This document shows positions 13,711 to 20,406 of a stretch of 57,755 nt of DNA, piece by piece; the stretch's first letter is position 1, and the number at the start of each line of letters is the position of its first letter. Location of the stretch: contig JANXAM010000007.1 of the NCBI GenBank assembly GCA_025062155.1, positions 22,464-80,218 on the forward strand, written 5' to 3'. The notes under the pieces were generated by a model that saw only the letters and a program-made list of their open reading frames with translations, did not search any database and was not told the DNA's origin. This DNA is from Gloeomargarita sp. SKYB120 (lineage in GTDB: Bacteria > Cyanobacteriota > Cyanobacteriia > Gloeomargaritales > Gloeomargaritaceae). Both the position numbers and the translations under genes were made by a program.

Positions 13711-13716
13711 GAAGGA
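13711..13716 (+). promoter_or_regulatory. Strong ribosome binding site of the vWA gene
   Basis: AAGGAG ends six bases before ATG 13722. It fixes the start of the first gene of the vWA-tubulin-MotA-MotB cluster and suggests efficient translation. The 73-bp gap after the DAHP synthase stop shows no clear terminator. Confidence 0.6.
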
Positions 13717-13721
13717 GCTGC

Positions 13722-14759
13722 ATGCCTGATTCCATCGTTCCTGGCAACCGTCCCCTGTCTGCGTGGCAACAAAGGGCGCTTGCGTGGGTTGGTCGCTGGG
13801 GCGGTCGCGATGTGGTGCTGGCTGTTGACCTCACAGAAAGCGTGGGTCTGAACGATGCAGGGCGGCTTCACCTGCGCCAGATTGTGGAGAAAACTTTAGT
13901 CAAAGGGCATAACTTGCACGTCATTCCTTTTGCGACCGGCGTACACGCTCCTAAGGTCTTTCGCTACCAGGGCCCCGAAGATATTCCCAAAATCTTGGCC
14001 GCGGTGCCCATGAGTCCCGGACCCGAACGGGGAACCGATATCAAATGCGCGGAACTTGCGATTTATCGGTATCTAGCAGAGCTGAATCAGCAGCGTCTGC
14101 AACAAGGTCAACCCATTAAAGCCCAGTCGGTCGTCTGGGTGACCGACGCCCCCTTGCATCTTCCCCAAGGCAAGGAGTGGGTAGAAGCACCCAACAGTCC
14201 TTGCGGCTTGGCTGGTCAGCCCCTCGCTGTGGAGCGCGACCGCTGGCTGGCGGTGCTCCCTATGTCCTTACGCCAGATGCCAGTTGGTCAGTTCCAGCTT
14301 ACTGTGGTGGACATCGCTCCCACTGTCCAGGAGTTCTGCACCCCCAGACCTGGTGGAGGCGAAGTCTGTTTGGTCAACAATTACCTGTGGGGACAGCTTT
14401 GGTGGCAGTTGCTGCTGGGAGGCATCCTTGGCCTTGCCGCCAGTCTGGGTGGAGTCTGGTCCTTAGTGCGATGGGTGCGCCAGCAGATTCCTTGGCCCAT
14501 TACTATTCAGGTCAATGACCAGGAATACCCTTTCAAGCTTAGGCACGGTCAAAAAATAGACCTCGGTGTTGATGTAACCTTGCCAGTCATGCAAACGGTG
14601 GGCCGCATTCAACGCTATCACCAAACACTCAAAATTGCTGCTTTTGACGAAGGTCTCTCCTACAACGGTCAGCCGATTGTGAGCTCTGTTACGATACCTT
14701 ACCGCCAGCGGATGGTTTGCTTGTCTTACAGGGACGAGACGATTAAAATTAGCTGGTAG
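13722..14759 (+). CDS. Membrane-anchored von Willebrand factor A protein (cluster gene 1)
   Basis: 345 residues. Residues 30-215 form a vWA domain: MIDAS-type metal residues are visible as D36-x-T38-x-S40 (VDLTES), T105-D106 in RGTDIK, and D142 in WVTDAPLH. The DxTxS form replaces the common DxSxS but can still bind Mg2+. One transmembrane helix lies at about 226-248, followed by a beta-rich C-terminal domain of about 95 residues. Three cysteines occur at the end of the vWA part. There is no N-terminal signal, so sidedness is open. vWA domains mediate metal-dependent protein contacts. It is first in a same-strand run with the tubulin-, MotA- and MotB-like genes, 22 bp before the next start. 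Its composition is like resident genes, unlike the following three. Confidence 0.8.
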   Translation: MPDSIVPGNRPLSAWQQRALAWVGRWGGRDVVLAVDLTESVGLNDAGRLHLRQIVEKTLVKGHNLHVIPFATGVHAPKVFRYQGPEDIPKILAAVPMSPGPERGTDIKCAELAIYRYLAELNQQRLQQGQPIKAQSVVWVTDAPLHLPQGKEWVEAPNSPCGLAGQPLAVERDRWLAVLPMSLRQMPVGQFQLTVVDIAPTVQEFCTPRPGGGEVCLVNNYLWGQLWWQLLLGGILGLAASLGGVWSLVRWVRQQIPWPITIQVNDQEYPFKLRHGQKIDLGVDVTLPVMQTVGRIQRYHQTLKIAAFDEGLSYNGQPIVSSVTIPYRQRMVCLSYRDETIKISW

Positions 14760-14781
14760 TTGCTTGGGCAAAGCAGGTCTC

Positions 14782-17700
14782 ATGACTAGCGCTCACAATG
14801 AAGATTTGCTAAGAGTTACGCGAGTTCTCTGTGTAGGGATAGGAGGAACAGGGGCGAAAGTACTGGAGCGAGTTAGACGCATCATTGTTGATGAATTTGG
14901 GTCTTTGTCAGCTTTGCCAATTGTTGGTTTCGTTTACATTGATACAGACGGTGGTGTGCATCTTTTGCCCTATCGGGGGCAGTCCATTGATTTCACGCCA
15001 GCGGAGAAATTACACATTTCCGTGTCCCATCACGTTGTGAATCAGTTTAAGGAAAACTACGAGCAACGCTGCCAAAATCCTTATCTTAGTACGCCAGATG
15101 ACCATATTTTTGAATGGTTTCCCAGTGGCCTAATTCGCAATCTCAGTACCATTGAGAATGGTGCGGGCGCGATACGAGCTATTGGTCGCTTGGCACTGTT
15201 TAAAAACTATGAAAAAATTAAGGAATCTTTGACAAACGCCTACGCTCGGGTGAACACAGCCGATGTAGCAGCACTTATCGAGCGTGGTATTGCAGTTAGC
15301 CCCGGTCTTCGTGTGTTTGTTGTGGGCTCACTTTGCGGTGGAACAGGTAGTGGGATTTTCTTGGACATCGGCTATATTCTCCGCCGTCAATTCGAGTCTA
15401 ACGTGGGGTCATTTGAGAGTCATGCTTACTTTGTCATCAGTCCGGAGCTTTATGCCAGCAAGGAAGATGTAAAAGCCAACTGTTATGCGGCTTTGAAGGA
15501 ACTTGATTACTATAGTCGTCCTGGTACGCTCTTTCATGCGAATTATCCCGGAGAGCCCCCCTTCTCCGAAATGCGTCCGCCCTATGACTTTGTGTATTTG
15601 ATTTCCAACTCCACGCCTGATGGTGCCTTTATCATTCCTGCTGGCGACCCAGATGCGATGGGTAAAATTGCGTATACAATTGCCCAGAAGATATGTCTCT
15701 TCTTCATAAGTAGTGAAACAGCTCGAGCAGCTATTTCTGCGCGAGACAACCTGGCGAAAAATGCAATCGCTATGAACTATTTTGACAAACATCCAAGACC
15801 TAATTGCCAAGCTTACATGACAACTGGGTTAGCTACCATCTACTTTCCTCAAGACAAGATCAACCAGCAAGCTGTCAATAAAGCGAAGATTATTTTACTG
15901 GAGTTTTGGAGGAGTGGCTCGGGACAAAAGCCAACGCAAGGTGAGATGCGCCAAGCATTCGCCAATCGCTGCGAATGGAAAACTAGCGAGTTAGAGGACT
16001 TTTTGCGCCGTCGCATCCAAGAAGTTAAAGTGGAAGGGGCAACGGTGCCCGAGCTGATAAGGCGCTGGCAGCAATTACAAGAAGGCCAAATTAATGCAGC
16101 GGCTAGACGTGCCGAGCAGGATGACCTAGTGACACAGCTACCCCAGCGGTTTGAAAGCTTGTTACGCTTGGTCAAGTTGGCCGACAATAGTCGTGAGAGG
16201 GGTGCTTGGTTGACATCTTTGGTAGACCAGCTACCTGATATCATCCGCGATATTGTAGTCAGTATTGAAAGGTTTTTAGAGCAAATTTTAAGACCTGAAG
16301 ATCAGTTTTTTGGGATAGAGAATGCACTGAACTGGTTGCAAGGACTCAAGCTAGAACTTGAGCGTATACGCGTACAGCCGTTAGATGACCGCTTTCAGGA
16401 TACGGAAAGAAGATGTCAGGAAGTTACTGTTCAGATGCAGAATGAGATTAGAGCAATTAGGAGTCAATGGTGGCCGTATGGCAGGGTTGCTAGAATCCAG
16501 AATGCCCTTCGCAGAGCAGTTGAACAAGTTGCCCAACTTGCTCGGCGCAACTACCAATGGCAGGTAGAGCGCTTGGTGCGACAAGCAGCGGAAGGACTCA
16601 TTGAGTATGTGGACGTCAGGACTCTCTCTTTGAATGAGTTTGATGAAAGTCTTCAAGAGTTAATATCCTTCTTTCAGAGAGAAGCAAAAAGTTTAGTAGA
16701 CAAGGGTGGCCAGGAGCGAATTGGTCTGGCAATTGATAGTCCGGCTGATGTTGAAGAAGTCTTACGGGAGCTTCTTCCTGCTAAAGAGCAGGAGCGTCGT
16801 CAGCGAATGAATCAGATTTCCGCTGAAATGATACGTGATCTGGCTAGCTTAGATGCAGATGAGAGACCTAGCTTGAGAAGGGTACTGCAGCCTCGTCCAT
16901 CGCGCGAAGAGATGCGTGAAGCGCTGGACCGAGAGATGGAGGCAAGAGCCGCTCGAATAAATAGAGAGTTGCGTAAATCAGCCATCCAGCGTTTCATAGA
17001 ATTAGGCGATAGAGAAAAGTTAATGGAGCACCTACGGAACCTGAAGCATCAGTCTGACATCCTGCTGCCGCTTAGATTTGGTGATAATTATTATGAAGAC
17101 AAAACCAGCAAACGAGTCTCCATCATTGCCTTTCACAGACCTCCAGCAAGAGATGACCCTTATGTTAGCCGTTTCGAAGAGCTGCTGAGAAGTGTCGGCT
17201 GGCTGGAAGGCACTCAGATATGTGAGTTACCTGAGTCCGAACAGCATCAAGTTATCTTCATGACCGAGTATGCAGCTTTTCCTTTACGGATCATTAATGA
17301 TCTAACTTCTAAGAGCTTACGGTTTACCTACCAGGAAAAGACTAGATTGTCAGGTCAGGATTCCCTACATACTAACCGTAGTATCGCCTTTTCAGATATT
17401 TTGCCCCCGAGTGACGCTATCGTTAAGGAAGTCCAAGCCTTGTTCTTCAAATGTCTTGGCTTAGATGTGTTTGAGCTGGAAGGTGACAATCTGGTTGTTT
17501 CTGTTGAGGACAATCTTGGTTTCAGAGAAAGGATTTCTCTAGGAAATGACTGGTCTGCTGTGATTGATAATCTGAGCTGGATACAAGGTAACAGAGCAAC
17601 CCCTGACGGGCGCGGGCTAACAGATTTTCTGCGGGATGAATTGAGAAGAAAGATAGACTATTTCGTGAATAATCCAGACGAATGGCAAGGCCAGCGGCAG

Positions 17701-17934
17701 AGGATTATAGAGAAAATTCAGGACATACGTAGCTACCCTGAGGACCACATCAACCACGCCATGGTTCCAATTGTAGCTGGCAAAGGGATAGGAAGTATAA
17801 CTGATGTAGCTAGAAAAGGAATTTTGGAACAGCTGATAGAGGAGATAGATAACCGTATTAGGGAGTGTTCATCCTTAGTACTCCCGGGCTCTCAGCAGGA
17901 AAAACAATTGCCGGAGGCCCGAGACCATGACTAA
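14782..17934 (+). CDS. Giant tubulin/FtsZ-like GTPase with long helical tail (cluster gene 2)
   Basis: About 1050 residues. The N-terminus has VLCVGIGGTGAKVLERV (GGTG at 21-24), the nucleotide-loop pattern of FtsZ/tubulin, and VGSLCGGTGSGIFLDIGYIL, where CGGTGSG (185-191) corresponds to the tubulin/FtsZ G-box GGGTGxG that binds GTP phosphates. This fits the 'tubulin-like' (Tubulin_2) family. The first ~430 residues look globular; about 430-800 is highly charged and helical, probably coiled coil; the C-terminal ~250 residues look folded again. FtsZ itself is about 400 residues, so most of this protein is extra. ATG 14782 is preferred over TTG 14764. The 3' end overlaps the MotA-like gene by 8 bp. 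DNA is A+T-rich: 23 of 60 bases from 17281 are G or C. Polymerisation and GTPase activity are inferred. Confidence 0.85.
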   Translation: MTSAHNEDLLRVTRVLCVGIGGTGAKVLERVRRIIVDEFGSLSALPIVGFVYIDTDGGVHLLPYRGQSIDFTPAEKLHISVSHHVVNQFKENYEQRCQNPYLSTPDDHIFEWFPSGLIRNLSTIENGAGAIRAIGRLALFKNYEKIKESLTNAYARVNTADVAALIERGIAVSPGLRVFVVGSLCGGTGSGIFLDIGYILRRQFESNVGSFESHAYFVISPELYASKEDVKANCYAALKELDYYSRPGTLFHANYPGEPPFSEMRPPYDFVYLISNSTPDGAFIIPAGDPDAMGKIAYTIAQKICLFFISSETARAAISARDNLAKNAIAMNYFDKHPRPNCQAYMTTGLATIYFPQDKINQQAVNKAKIILLEFWRSGSGQKPTQGEMRQAFANRCEWKTSELEDFLRRRIQEVKVEGATVPELIRRWQQLQEGQINAAARRAEQDDLVTQLPQRFESLLRLVKLADNSRERGAWLTSLVDQLPDIIRDIVVSIERFLEQILRPEDQFFGIENALNWLQGLKLELERIRVQPLDDRFQDTERRCQEVTVQMQNEIRAIRSQWWPYGRVARIQNALRRAVEQVAQLARRNYQWQVERLVRQAAEGLIEYVDVRTLSLNEFDESLQELISFFQREAKSLVDKGGQERIGLAIDSPADVEEVLRELLPAKEQERRQRMNQISAEMIRDLASLDADERPSLRRVLQPRPSREEMREALDREMEARAARINRELRKSAIQRFIELGDREKLMEHLRNLKHQSDILLPLRFGDNYYEDKTSKRVSIIAFHRPPARDDPYVSRFEELLRSVGWLEGTQICELPESEQHQVIFMTEYAAFPLRIINDLTSKSLRFTYQEKTRLSGQDSLHTNRSIAFSDILPPSDAIVKEVQALFFKCLGLDVFELEGDNLVVSVEDNLGFRERISLGNDWSAVIDNLSWIQGNRATPDGRGLTDFLRDELRRKIDYFVNNPDEWQGQRQRIIEKIQDIRSYPEDHINHAMVPIVAGKGIGSITDVARKGILEQLIEEIDNRIRECSSLVLPGSQQEKQLPEARDHD

Positions 17935-19681
17935 CTCAGTCCTACAAGTTATTGGTCAGGCTGTTCAATCTCCCTTGACACTACCTTGGATTCTACTGTC
18001 ATCAGGACTCGCCATCCTTAGCGTTTTGTTGCGTCTACTACTTTTTCGGAAGCTGGAATCGCTGATAGGGTGGGCTCGAGAACCATCGACGTCAGAGTAT
18101 GTTCCCCAGCTTGTCCGTAAGCTCGAGATAAAGGTTAGTAGGTTTTTACAAAGTCATGATGAGGTCAACACATCGGCTCTAATAGAGCGTGAATTAGCTG
18201 ATGAACCATTGCTTCATAAGCTTTCCCTGGAAAAAGCTGAGTATGTTACTGGGGTTGTACCTAACCTTTTAATTGCTGTAGGGCTATTGGGTACCTTTCT
18301 AGGAATAGCAATTAGTCTGAATGCAGTTAGGGATACTCTCGCTAGGCCTGACCTTAACTTGGCTGATCTTACCAGCGAGCTTAGCAAGCAGATAGATGGA
18401 ATGACCGTCGCCTTCATTTCGAGTTTAGTCAGCTTACTTTGGGGCATTATACTGGTTGTAGTTAATAGTATCTGGAACACGACAATAGCCCGAAGGAAGC
18501 TTTTTGCGAACTTAGAAATTCTTCTAGACCATGAGTTAGAAATTCAAGACCGCAGTCCCACAACAAGACTGATTCGATCAATAGAAAACAATTTTAGGGT
18601 TTTTCTGGATAGCTTTTATGAAACTGTCCGCAGTGCCATAGAAAAGCCCCTAGAGCGGCAGATAGGCAACTTGACAGAGTTAAACCGAGAGAACGCGGAA
18701 CTGGCACGACAAATCTATATCCACTTCGGCAATGCTGCTGGCAACCTTCTAACTGGGGCCAACACTTTTCAGACGGCAGCTCAAATTCTCTCTGACAGCC
18801 AGTTTGCAGAGAAAGTAAGTGCAGCTGCCACCCAAGCTTCACAATTTACTAACCAGCTTATTGCTATAACCCATTCTTCCCTGCAGCTCAACAGCACTGT
18901 TGCAGAACTTAATCAGAAAGTAGAAAGTTTAATAGAAATAGTAAACCAAAGCCAGATTGATTTTCAACGGGTTGTTCAAGACATCAAGTCAGCAGCGGAG
19001 ACATTTACTCACATTCGTGACGTAGCACACCACCTGCTAGAACGAGTTAGAGAAGCACAAGGAGAAATTATTGCCAGTTCGAGTGAGTTATCTCAGGTTG
19101 CATTAAAACTAAGTGACGCAACGGCCACCTTACACGCTGCTCGAGAGAACCTGTCTGAATGTGTTCAAAGTCTTCAGTCTATCCAAGAAGAAGTTAGCCA
19201 AAATAGGAAGCAAATTGAAAACCAGAACCAACTACTCAACCAGGAGTTAGGGTCTATTAGACAGGGGCTTGAGCAGTACAAGGAGCAGCGCTTTACCTGG
19301 GAGCGTGGCTACAGTGAGCTGCTGTCTCATCTTCAGCAACAGCTAAATCAATTGACGAATAAAATCTCCGGTGTGGAGCAATATTTGCAGGAACTTAATA
19401 GTTTTGCTCACCAGCTAATTAACCAGGAGTTAGTGTCCATTAAAAATGGGCTTGAACAGTACAAGGACCAGCGTCTCACCTGGGAGCATGAGTACGGTGA
19501 GCTGCTGTCAAACCTGCAGCAAAAGTTAAGCAAGTTGACGAATGAAACAGCAGATATTAAGCAGTGTTTGCAGGAACTTAGGAATTTTGCTTACCAGTTG
19601 GACACGCGAGTTTCATCTCAAGCAAGCACACAGACCAATGAAGGAAAGTCTTTCCGCCCACCCTGGAGAAGAACCCCCTAG
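17927..19681 (+). CDS. MotA/TolQ/ExbB (ZorA-like) channel protein with long coiled tail (cluster gene 3)
   Basis: 584 residues. Hydrophobic helices at about 20-40, 108-131 and 159-180. The VPNLLIAVGLLGTFLGIAIS segment and GMTVAFISSLVSLLWGIIL are the conserved pore helices of the MotA/TolQ/ExbB family, which form pentamers around a MotB/TolR/ExbD dimer and conduct H+ or Na+. Residues from about 185 to the end form a long charged helical tail, which is the feature that distinguishes ZorA of Zorya defence from flagellar MotA. Near the C-terminus a 61-residue unit is repeated in tandem. It starts 8 bp inside the tubulin gene, so translation is coupled. The C-terminus is basic and Pro-rich. Confidence 0.87.
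   Translation: MTNSVLQVIGQAVQSPLTLPWILLSSGLAILSVLLRLLLFRKLESLIGWAREPSTSEYVPQLVRKLEIKVSRFLQSHDEVNTSALIERELADEPLLHKLSLEKAEYVTGVVPNLLIAVGLLGTFLGIAISLNAVRDTLARPDLNLADLTSELSKQIDGMTVAFISSLVSLLWGIILVVVNSIWNTTIARRKLFANLEILLDHELEIQDRSPTTRLIRSIENNFRVFLDSFYETVRSAIEKPLERQIGNLTELNRENAELARQIYIHFGNAAGNLLTGANTFQTAAQILSDSQFAEKVSAAATQASQFTNQLIAITHSSLQLNSTVAELNQKVESLIEIVNQSQIDFQRVVQDIKSAAETFTHIRDVAHHLLERVREAQGEIIASSSELSQVALKLSDATATLHAARENLSECVQSLQSIQEEVSQNRKQIENQNQLLNQELGSIRQGLEQYKEQRFTWERGYSELLSHLQQQLNQLTNKISGVEQYLQELNSFAHQLINQELVSIKNGLEQYKDQRLTWEHEYGELLSNLQQKLSKLTNETADIKQCLQELRNFAYQLDTRVSSQASTQTNEGKSFRPPWRRTP
19238..19603 (+). repeat. Tandem 183-bp repeat inside the MotA-like gene
   Basis: Two in-frame units start at 19238 and 19421, a period of 183 bp or 61 codons. 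Both begin NQEL, contain GLEQYK, TWE, and GELL or SELL, and end CLQEL or YLQEL then FAHQL or FAYQL. Protein-level identity is high while third positions have diverged, so the duplication is not recent and has been kept under selection. It lengthens a coiled-coil tail by exactly one unit. Confidence 0.85.
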
Positions 19682-19734
19682 CGCAGCCTACGGCGTTAGA
19701 CTGGTAGGGAAGATAGATTTGCGATGCAGGTCCT

Positions 19735-20406
19735 ATGCACCGTCAACGTCGCCGCTCTCTGGCACAGGTAGAAGAGCTGAATATCTGGATGTCTTTCACC
19801 GACCTGATGTCGGGGAGTCTTCTAATTTTTAGCCTGCTTCTATTTTTACTAGTTGGCTCACTCCACCAGAGTCGAAACAACGTAGGCCAGCAATCTGACG
19901 AAGTACCCCCTATTATTGTCATCCCAGACAACGAGGCATTTCGTTTCCCAGTGGGTAGTGCAGAACTATCTAGCGCCTTACGACAGTACATTTGGGAAGA
20001 TTTAGTTGAAAAAATCATAGCCAATCGTCGGCGCTTTGGCATTGATACGATTGAAATTATTGGTCACACAGACGGTCAGCCAAATCGGGGTGCTCGCAGT
20101 AACTTGGATATGTTGTTGGAAGTGTCAGCAGCAACAAACACTCTGCAGCGGCTTACGCCTGGTTCCAACGTAGACCTTGGCTTAATGCGGGCGTTGGCGA
20201 TTGCAAATGAGCTGCATAAAATACAGGCCCAAAGACCAGAGCTAGAAGAATTGAAAGGATTAAATTTCCGGGCTTACTCAGCAGGACAACTGTACTTACC
20301 CACCGGAGAAATTGCTCCTCCTGACCGCAGTAATGACTCTAGCCGCCGCCGGATTGAAGTGCGTTTTACCCGTCTGGGACGAGTTGAGAAAGCTGTGAGT
20401 CAATAG
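19735..20406 (+). CDS. MotB/ZorB-like stator protein with OmpA peptidoglycan-binding domain (cluster gene 4)
   Basis: 223 residues. A basic cytoplasmic start is followed by one transmembrane helix (about 22-42) opening with FTDLMSGSLL; Asp23 is at the position of the ion-carrying aspartate of MotB/ZorB. After a linker, residues 70-215 form an OmpA-type domain: IIGHTDGQPN, then SNLDMLLEVSAATN, a L-x-x-x-RA helix, and the closing SRRRIEVRF, where the Asp and Arg residues bind meso-diaminopimelate of peptidoglycan. This would anchor the channel to the cell wall. Lies 53 bp after the MotA-like gene. ATG 19735. TolR/ExbD lack an OmpA domain, so MotB/ZorB is the better comparison. Confidence 0.87.
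   Translation: MHRQRRRSLAQVEELNIWMSFTDLMSGSLLIFSLLLFLLVGSLHQSRNNVGQQSDEVPPIIVIPDNEAFRFPVGSAELSSALRQYIWEDLVEKIIANRRRFGIDTIEIIGHTDGQPNRGARSNLDMLLEVSAATNTLQRLTPGSNVDLGLMRALAIANELHKIQAQRPELEELKGLNFRAYSAGQLYLPTGEIAPPDRSNDSSRRRIEVRFTRLGRVEKAVSQ

What the first reader, a model, noticed from the sequence alone, without database searches (positions are those of the whole stretch)
13722..20406. Candidate undescribed system: vWA protein + tubulin-like GTPase + MotA/ZorA-like channel + MotB/ZorB-like OmpA protein
Seen: four same-strand genes with tight spacing (22 bp gap, 8 bp overlap, 53 bp gap) encoding a membrane vWA protein with an intact-looking metal site, a ~1050-residue protein with both tubulin/FtsZ nucleotide motifs, a MotA/TolQ-type protein with a ~400-residue tail, and a MotB-like protein with ion-carrying Asp23 and an OmpA domain. 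Known: Zorya defence uses ZorA (MotA-like with a long tail) and ZorB (MotB-like with OmpA domain) as a cell-wall-anchored ion-driven motor; its effectors are ZorC/ZorD or ZorE in the types I know. Inference: here a cytoskeletal GTPase and a vWA protein take the effector/sensor place, so a motor may act on, or be tracked by, a tubulin-like filament. Roles could be phage defence, envelope or division surveillance, or motility.
Basis: partly seen in the sequence, partly recalled or inferred. Interest (0 to 1): 0.93.

Follow-up and report, generated by a model that had tools for sequence, protein, structure and literature searches.

The report
Rotary motor plus tubulin-like protein operon
This cyanobacterium carries a conserved four-gene operon that pairs a cell-wall-anchored, flagellar-stator-like ion motor with a bacterial relative of tubulin and a membrane metal-site (vWA) protein; part of this gene set was proposed in 2010 as a membrane-remodelling system, but the motor half had not been recognised in the papers I could search.

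Summary
Four same-strand genes at 13722-20406 encode a vWA membrane protein, a Tubulin_2/FtsZl1 GTPase (E 1e-76), a ZorA/TolQ-type channel subunit with a ~350-residue coiled-coil tail, and a ZorB/MotB-type OmpA protein with invariant Asp23.

The operon is conserved across Cyanobacteria: all four genes in order in 16 of 19 other vWA loci and in 50 of 80 named loci. All 35 genomes (of 292) with the vWA also carry the MotB. Tubulin-MotA-MotB order recurs in Deinococcus plasmids, with an unrelated-looking protein in the vWA slot.

The vWA + FtsZl1 + OmpA set is not undescribed: Makarova and Koonin (2010) proposed it as a membrane-remodelling system, without recognising a MotA partner. I found no paper joining this family to a 5:2 motor.

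Zorya membership fails: no ZorC-G gene, scores far below NCBIfam's ZorA cut-off, no defence-island context, mostly vertical inheritance.

Best reading: a peptidoglycan-anchored ion motor coupled to an FtsZl1 scaffold, working in envelope or membrane maintenance. Coupling and function are inferred. Phage defence remains a rival, since related vWA-tubulin genes sit beside Hma/BrxL genes in Thermales.

The parts
13712..13717 (+). AAGGAG ribosome-binding site of the first gene
   Evidence: sequence
13722..14759 (+). vWA membrane protein, 345 aa; metal site D36-x-T38-x-S40, T105, D142; one TM helix (about residues 226-247) and a beta-rich C-terminal domain
14782..17934 (+). Tubulin_2 / FtsZl1 GTPase (ATG start preferred; the TTG at 14764 is an alternative)
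14836..14853 (+). T1 nucleotide loop GIGGTG
15325..15354 (+). T4 nucleotide loop GSLCGGTGSG
17927..19681 (+). ZorA/MotA/TolQ-type channel subunit, 584 aa
18632..19678 (+). coiled-coil tail of the MotA-like protein (residues 236-584)
   Evidence: 3.52-residue hydrophobic period, power 78 against a shuffle maximum of 25
19735..20406 (+). ZorB/MotB-type OmpA protein, 223 aa
19801..19803 (+). Asp23 codon, presumed ion-carrying residue
   Evidence: invariant in 15 relatives
20062..20190 (+). peptidoglycan-binding residues GHTD (110-113) and N145-x-x-L-x-x-x-R152
   Evidence: invariant in 15 relatives

Best explanation
The operon encodes a peptidoglycan-anchored, ion-driven motor of the MotA5-MotB2 (5:2) class whose cytoplasmic coiled-coil tail works with an FtsZl1 tubulin-like GTPase and a membrane vWA adaptor; its job is most likely maintenance, surveillance or remodelling of the cell envelope, not phage defence. 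Proposed steps: (1) MotB binds the cell wall through its OmpA domain and carries ions on Asp23 [residues shown; activity inferred from MotAB/ZorAB]. (2) Ion flow turns or strains the MotA ring and its coiled-coil tail, about 50 nm if continuous [coiled coil shown; length, stoichiometry and motion inferred]. (3) FtsZl1 binds GTP through intact T1 and T4 loops and assembles on or near the tail at the membrane [motifs and fold shown; binding and assembly inferred]. (4) The vWA protein, through its metal site, ties the GTPase assembly to the membrane or motor [site shown; role inferred].
For: Identity of the parts. Operon: vWA-tubulin gap median 17.5 bp; all four in order on one strand in 16 of 19 other vWA loci of the phylum sample, two of the other three being cut by contig ends, and in 50 of 80 named loci. 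Co-occurrence: all 35 genomes with the vWA have MotB; 13 of 292 have MotB without an intact vWA (relatedness not corrected). Tubulin-MotA-MotB order recurs in four Deinococcus plasmids, with profile matches for tubulin (E 2e-24), MotA (4e-8) and MotB (2e-4). Housekeeping setting. The MotB tree largely follows host families. No viral contig encodes the tubulin, and one distant OmpA hit was the only viral match to MotB.
Against: No complex was modelled, so the 5:2 assembly, MotA-MotB pairing and any contact with the tubulin are inferred. The presumed T7 acidic residue is D/E in 15 of 17 relatives but Phe in this copy and its same-genus relative, so GTP hydrolysis by polymerisation may be lost here. 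A close relative kept MotA-MotB but lost the vWA and nearly all of the tubulin gene, and sister MotA-MotB pairs stand alone, so the motor does not always need the tubulin. vWA topology is unresolved. The envelope function rests on context and analogy.
Confidence: 0.5

Rival explanations
1. An unrecognised anti-phage system: the ZorAB-like motor senses envelope disturbance by an infecting phage and the tubulin-like GTPase with the vWA protein is the effector.
For: Closest solved and PADLOC relatives are ZorA and ZorB. The system is patchy: vWA in 35 of 292 genomes. In Thermales plasmids a vWA-Tubulin_2 pair lies beside brxL and, in Meiothermus, an HmaC gene. The Deinococcus versions found are on plasmids, though only a plasmid collection was searched for that phylum.
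Against: No nuclease or ZorC-G gene in the operon; no clear defence gene among 88 flanking proteins at 18 loci; MotB tree largely follows host families.
Confidence: 0.25
2. A gated ion channel or sensor rather than a working motor: FtsZl1 does not polymerise but acts as a GTP-dependent plug or switch on the MotA tail, and vWA reports envelope state.
For: T7-like acidic residue lost in this copy and its same-genus relative; the 2010 authors could not identify the T6-H7 elements in the family and allowed that it may not form filaments.
Against: T1 and T4 loops stay invariant; 15 of 17 relatives keep the acidic residue.
Confidence: 0.15
3. Two independent pairs that merely share an operon: vWA-FtsZl1 and MotA-MotB have separate jobs.
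For: Lone MotA-MotB pairs are common (24 of 80 loci), and the VI4D9 genome lost vWA and the tubulin but kept the pair; G054 keeps vWA-tubulin with MotB elsewhere and no MotA at either place.
Against: All 35 vWA genomes have MotB; the tubulin-MotA-MotB order recurs in another phylum.
Confidence: 0.1

Closest known systems
FtsZl1 / vWA / OmpA predicted membrane-remodelling system (Makarova and Koonin 2010, PMC2875224)
   Same: [quoted passage not shown] vWA gene, most with intact MIDAS, beside it; OmpA-domain gene in several genomes. Their cyanobacterial members form a distinct clade.
   Different: Their text does not mention MotA, TolQ or proton channels and treats the OmpA proteins as porin-like; here the OmpA protein is a MotB/ZorB-type subunit with a ZorA-like partner. 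Their P-loop GTPase and protein kinases are not in this operon.
Zorya anti-phage systems (ZorA-ZorB; PMC11890865)
   Same: MotA-like subunit with a long cytoplasmic tail plus a MotB-like subunit with an Asp in the TM helix and a peptidoglycan-binding domain.
   Different: No ZorC/D (type I), ZorE (II) or ZorF/G (III); 24 bits against a 500-bit NCBIfam cut-off; not in defence islands; mostly vertical inheritance.
Flagellar stator MotAB and TolQR/ExbBD motors
   Same: MotA_ExbB channel core and an Asp-bearing partner; in MotB also a peptidoglycan-binding domain.
   Different: No flagellar, Tol or Ton genes in the operon; the coiled-coil tail of about 350 residues is ZorA-like.
vWA-Tubulin_2 genes beside brxL/Hma genes in Thermales plasmids
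   Same: vWA gene directly upstream of a Tubulin_2 gene.
   Different: The third gene shows no MotA or OmpA match; neighbours include defence genes; the vWA protein is larger and different.

Membership tests
FtsZl1 / Tubulin_2 | Match to Tubulin_2 above its curated cut-off | tested here: met
   258.7 bits against a cut-off of 27
FtsZl1 / Tubulin_2 | Signature GTP-binding loop GGTGSG | tested here: met
   GSLCGGTGSG invariant in 17 sequences
FtsZl1 / Tubulin_2 | Tubulin-like fold of the N-terminal domain | tested here: met
   AF2 + Foldseek: tubulins and CetZ, probability 1.00; CetZ TM-score 0.50 by target length
FtsZl1 / Tubulin_2 | GTP hydrolysis and filament formation | not testable with these tools
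   Needs biochemistry; presumed T7 acidic residue missing in this copy
FtsZl1 predicted operon (2010) | Adjacent vWA gene and, in several genomes, an OmpA-domain gene | tested here: met
5:2 ion motor (MotAB/ZorAB/TolQR type) | MotA/ExbB channel core | tested here: met
   Pfam E 4e-4 (below its cut-off), PADLOC ZorA E 1.8e-12, invariant GLLGT-type motifs, ZorA channel matches in the PDB
5:2 ion motor (MotAB/ZorAB/TolQR type) | TM Asp and OmpA-type peptidoglycan-binding residues in the partner | tested here: met
   Asp23, GHTD and N-x-x-L-x-x-x-R invariant in 15 sequences
5:2 ion motor (MotAB/ZorAB/TolQR type) | Pentamer-dimer assembly and ion conduction | not testable with these tools
   No multimer prediction or experiment available
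Zorya | ZorA above its family threshold | tested here: not met
   NCBIfam antiphage_ZorA_4: 24.1 bits against 500; PADLOC ZorA and ZorB hits are only 45 and 52 bits and PADLOC gives no cut-off
Zorya | Accessory ZorC/D, ZorE or ZorF/G in the locus | tested here: not met
   None in the operon or among the flanking proteins scanned
Zorya | Defence-island setting (typical, not obligatory) | tested here: not met
   88 flanking proteins at 18 loci; strongest PADLOC hit is a UvrA cross-hit
Zorya | Protection against phage | not testable with these tools
   Plating assay needed

The most novel reading that the evidence does not exclude
A cell-wall-anchored, ion-driven rotary motor mechanically coupled to a bacterial tubulin-family assembly: torque on the MotA coiled-coil tail turns, strains or positions FtsZl1 filaments at the membrane, with a vWA protein as clutch in Cyanobacteria and a related arrangement in Deinococcus.
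Probability: 0.25. Interest if true: 0.93.

Novelty: new variant of a known kind. Interest (0 to 1): 0.62.

Why it matters
FtsZl1 proteins have been known since 2010 as a widespread tubulin-superfamily branch predicted to remodel membranes, with no experimental mechanism that I could find. Recognising that in Cyanobacteria and Deinococcus the FtsZl1 operon includes both subunits of a MotAB/ZorAB-type motor ties that open question to a class of machine that is already understood, and gives direct tests: co-purification, cryo-EM of the motor with FtsZl1, and Asp-to-Asn mutation of MotB. If the coupling is real, it would be a bacterial case of an ion motor working with a tubulin relative.

Tried and rejected
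Zorya membership: rejected (scores, missing effectors, context). Mobile or viral origin: viral-contig scans with MotB and with the tubulin found one distant OmpA hit and no tubulin; plasmid hits to the tubulin are mostly Deinococcota, with one each from a cyanobacterium and an Azospirillum. Defence-island test: the strong PADLOC hit (mad3/mad8) on a flanking gene traced to UvrA, a generic ATPase cross-hit. 'Split loci': I first took lone MotA-MotB loci with a distant tubulin as split operons; fetching and searching them showed a vWA-tubulin-MotA locus with a MotB nearby plus a second lone pair in three genomes, so the idea was dropped. Deinococcus upstream protein as a vWA homologue: profile comparison gave E 0.22, so homology is not claimed. 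Sequence searches of the PDB with the tubulin and vWA profiles found nothing meaningful. The argument from vertical inheritance is limited because the MotB tree is a quick tree with many low-support forks.
Full report
Where it is. The window lies in a 2.48-Mb draft genome of a cyanobacterium. The closest named MotB relative is from a Gloeomargaritales cyanobacterium, at 61% identity.

What is there. Four genes follow one another on the + strand. The vWA gene (13722-14759) starts at an ATG with an AAGGAG site. The tubulin-like gene most likely starts at the ATG at 14782, since relatives have a median vWA-tubulin gap of 17.5 bp. The MotA gene overlaps it by 8 bp, and the MotB gene follows after 53 bp.

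vWA protein. No Pfam model hits it. The AF2 model (mean pLDDT 83.8) gives vWA domains as the leading Foldseek matches (CLCA1, BatB, VWF A1, integrin I domain; probability up to 1.00, but no E below 0.001). Metal-site residues D36, T38, S40 and T105 are invariant and D142 nearly so in 19 homologues. One hydrophobic helix is followed by a beta-rich C-terminal domain. Topology is a puzzle: the N-termini start straight into the vWA domain without a signal peptide, and no upstream in-frame start adds one, but K/R residues average 3.5 on the C-terminal side of the helix and 0.7 on the N-terminal side, which would place the vWA domain outside the cytoplasm.

Tubulin-like protein. Tubulin_2 E 1.2e-76. 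The T4 loop GSLCGGTGSG is invariant in 17 relatives and T1 is G(I/L)GGTG. The AF2 model (pLDDT 79.5) matches tubulins and the archaeal CetZ in the PDB (probability 1.00, best E 1.3e-4). A helix break at about residue 316 may be the T7 loop; the acidic residue there is D/E in 15 of 17 relatives and Phe in this copy and that of G085, same genus. This assignment is tentative. The genome also has an ordinary FtsZ and a second Tubulin_2 gene in a different setting.

Motor proteins. The MotA-like protein has channel motifs PNLL...GLLGTF.GI and AF..S conserved in 16 relatives, PADLOC ZorA E 1.8e-12, and a 349-residue tail with a 3.52-residue hydrophobic period far above shuffles, the mark of a coiled coil. 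The MotB-like protein has Asp23 at its TM helix and the OmpA peptidoglycan-binding residues GHTD and N-x-x-L-x-x-x-R, all invariant in 15 relatives. Its best solved relative is 8vvn_B (E 2.1e-6), an entry deposited with the Zorya study of Mariano et al. 2025 (PMC11890865). MotA matches 8vvn_C and the ZorA chain 8qyy_A in the channel region.

Conservation as a unit. In a sample of 292 genomes of the phylum, 57 have a Tubulin_2 match over the cut-off. Among the 19 fetched loci besides the window that have this type of vWA, 16 have all four genes in order on one strand (some with inserted ORFs or split frames); two end at contig edges after MotA; one (G054) lacks MotA and MotB at the site and has a MotB elsewhere. 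Of 80 named genome loci found with the MotB profile, all cyanobacterial, 50 have all four in order and 24 show only MotA-MotB, some at contig edges. In the 292 genomes, all 35 with the vWA also have MotB; 13 have MotB without an intact vWA, one of them with vWA remnants. Fisher's test gives p about 1e-34 but ignores relatedness. Lone pairs lie beside genes that by eye are recR, hisS and phoH. Three genomes hold both a full locus and a lone pair. In the Gloeomargaritales relative VI4D9 the vWA gene and all but the last 101 codons of the tubulin gene are gone while MotA and MotB are intact.

Other phyla. In four Deinococcus plasmids a Tubulin_2 gene is followed by a MotA-like and an OmpA/MotB-like gene (in one a transposase gene intervenes). 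Profile comparison supports tubulin (E 2e-24), MotA (4e-8) and MotB (2e-4) but not the upstream protein (E 0.22). In three Thermales plasmids a vWA-tubulin pair has no motor genes and lies beside brxL; the Meiothermus locus also has an HmaC gene.

Prior work. Makarova and Koonin (2010, PMC2875224) defined FtsZl1 and proposed it as the key component of a membrane-remodelling system with a vWA protein, a GTPase and OmpA-family proteins. The text never mentions MotA, TolQ or a proton channel; their supplementary tables could not be read here, so the gene may be among their unnamed families. My searches found no paper joining this family to ZorAB or MotAB, within an open-access library only.

Defence or not. 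PMC11890865 lists ZorA and ZorB as shared by all Zorya types, with ZorC/D, ZorE or ZorF/G as further parts. None is in this operon. NCBIfam's ZorA model scores 24 bits against a cut-off of 500. Flanking genes in the window are of housekeeping type. At 18 other loci, 88 flanking proteins include Ycf48, sigma factors, MurJ, glutamine synthetase and UvrA. The MotB tree groups mostly by host family, though many forks are weak. Defence is less likely but not excluded.

Mechanism. I commit to a peptidoglycan-anchored ion motor whose tail works with an FtsZl1 assembly and a vWA membrane adaptor in envelope maintenance or remodelling (confidence 0.5). Shown: the four identities, key residues and operon conservation. 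Inferred: stoichiometry, ion flow, contact between motor and tubulin, and function.

Judgement. The finding is real and more than ordinary annotation, but half of it was predicted in 2010. The new element is the motor, recognised in two phyla. New variant of a known kind; interest 0.62.

Noticed in passing
L175:6407-12761, L182:6309-12742, L183:6378-12779: In three Thermales plasmids a vWA gene, a Tubulin_2 gene and a third gene of about 680 aa lie just upstream of brxL; at the Meiothermus locus an HmaC-like ATPase gene (PADLOC E 0) is also present. The 2026 BREX survey does not mention tubulin or FtsZ.
   Followed up: partly
L038:5917-13625, L039, L040: Three cyanobacterial genomes hold another kind of cluster: a signal-peptide vWA (Pfam VWA_2), a Tubulin_2 protein of about 915 aa, and a third protein of 920-1030 aa that by eye resembles a degenerate Tubulin_2.
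   Followed up: partly
L058:6233-12183 and similar loci (L047, L059, L061, L067, L072): A further Tubulin_2 cluster in cyanobacteria: a periplasmic-binding-protein domain behind a TM segment (Peripla_BP_6), a TM protein with a vWA-like DxSxS motif, then Tubulin_2.
   Followed up: partly
L177:5093-9504, L178:2973-6414: Rhizobium and Sinorhizobium plasmids carry a tubulin-free operon ending in a coiled-coil membrane protein and an OmpA protein that matches this MotB family (E about 4e-41); by eye a vWA-like gene precedes them in Rhizobium.
   Followed up: partly
window 13722-14759: The vWA protein lacks a signal peptide, yet the charges around its TM helix and two invariant cysteines beside it suggest that the vWA domain is outside the cytoplasm. 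Unresolved.
   Followed up: partly
L176:12075-12680 and three Deinococcus relatives: The Deinococcus MotB-like proteins have GHTQ instead of GHTD in the peptidoglycan-binding motif; Deinococcus walls carry ornithine instead of diaminopimelate (from memory), so this may be an adaptation.
   Followed up: no
L042:9177-9778, L048:7498-8099, L062:3792-4397: The same pair of small ORFs (113 and 82 aa) is inserted between the vWA and tubulin genes in two genomes and occurs elsewhere in a third; possibly a mobile pair.
   Followed up: no
L193:9791-12513 (Gloeomargaritales VI4D9): Only the last 101 codons of the tubulin gene remain in front of intact MotA and MotB genes: a natural deletion of vWA and tubulin.
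   Followed up: yes
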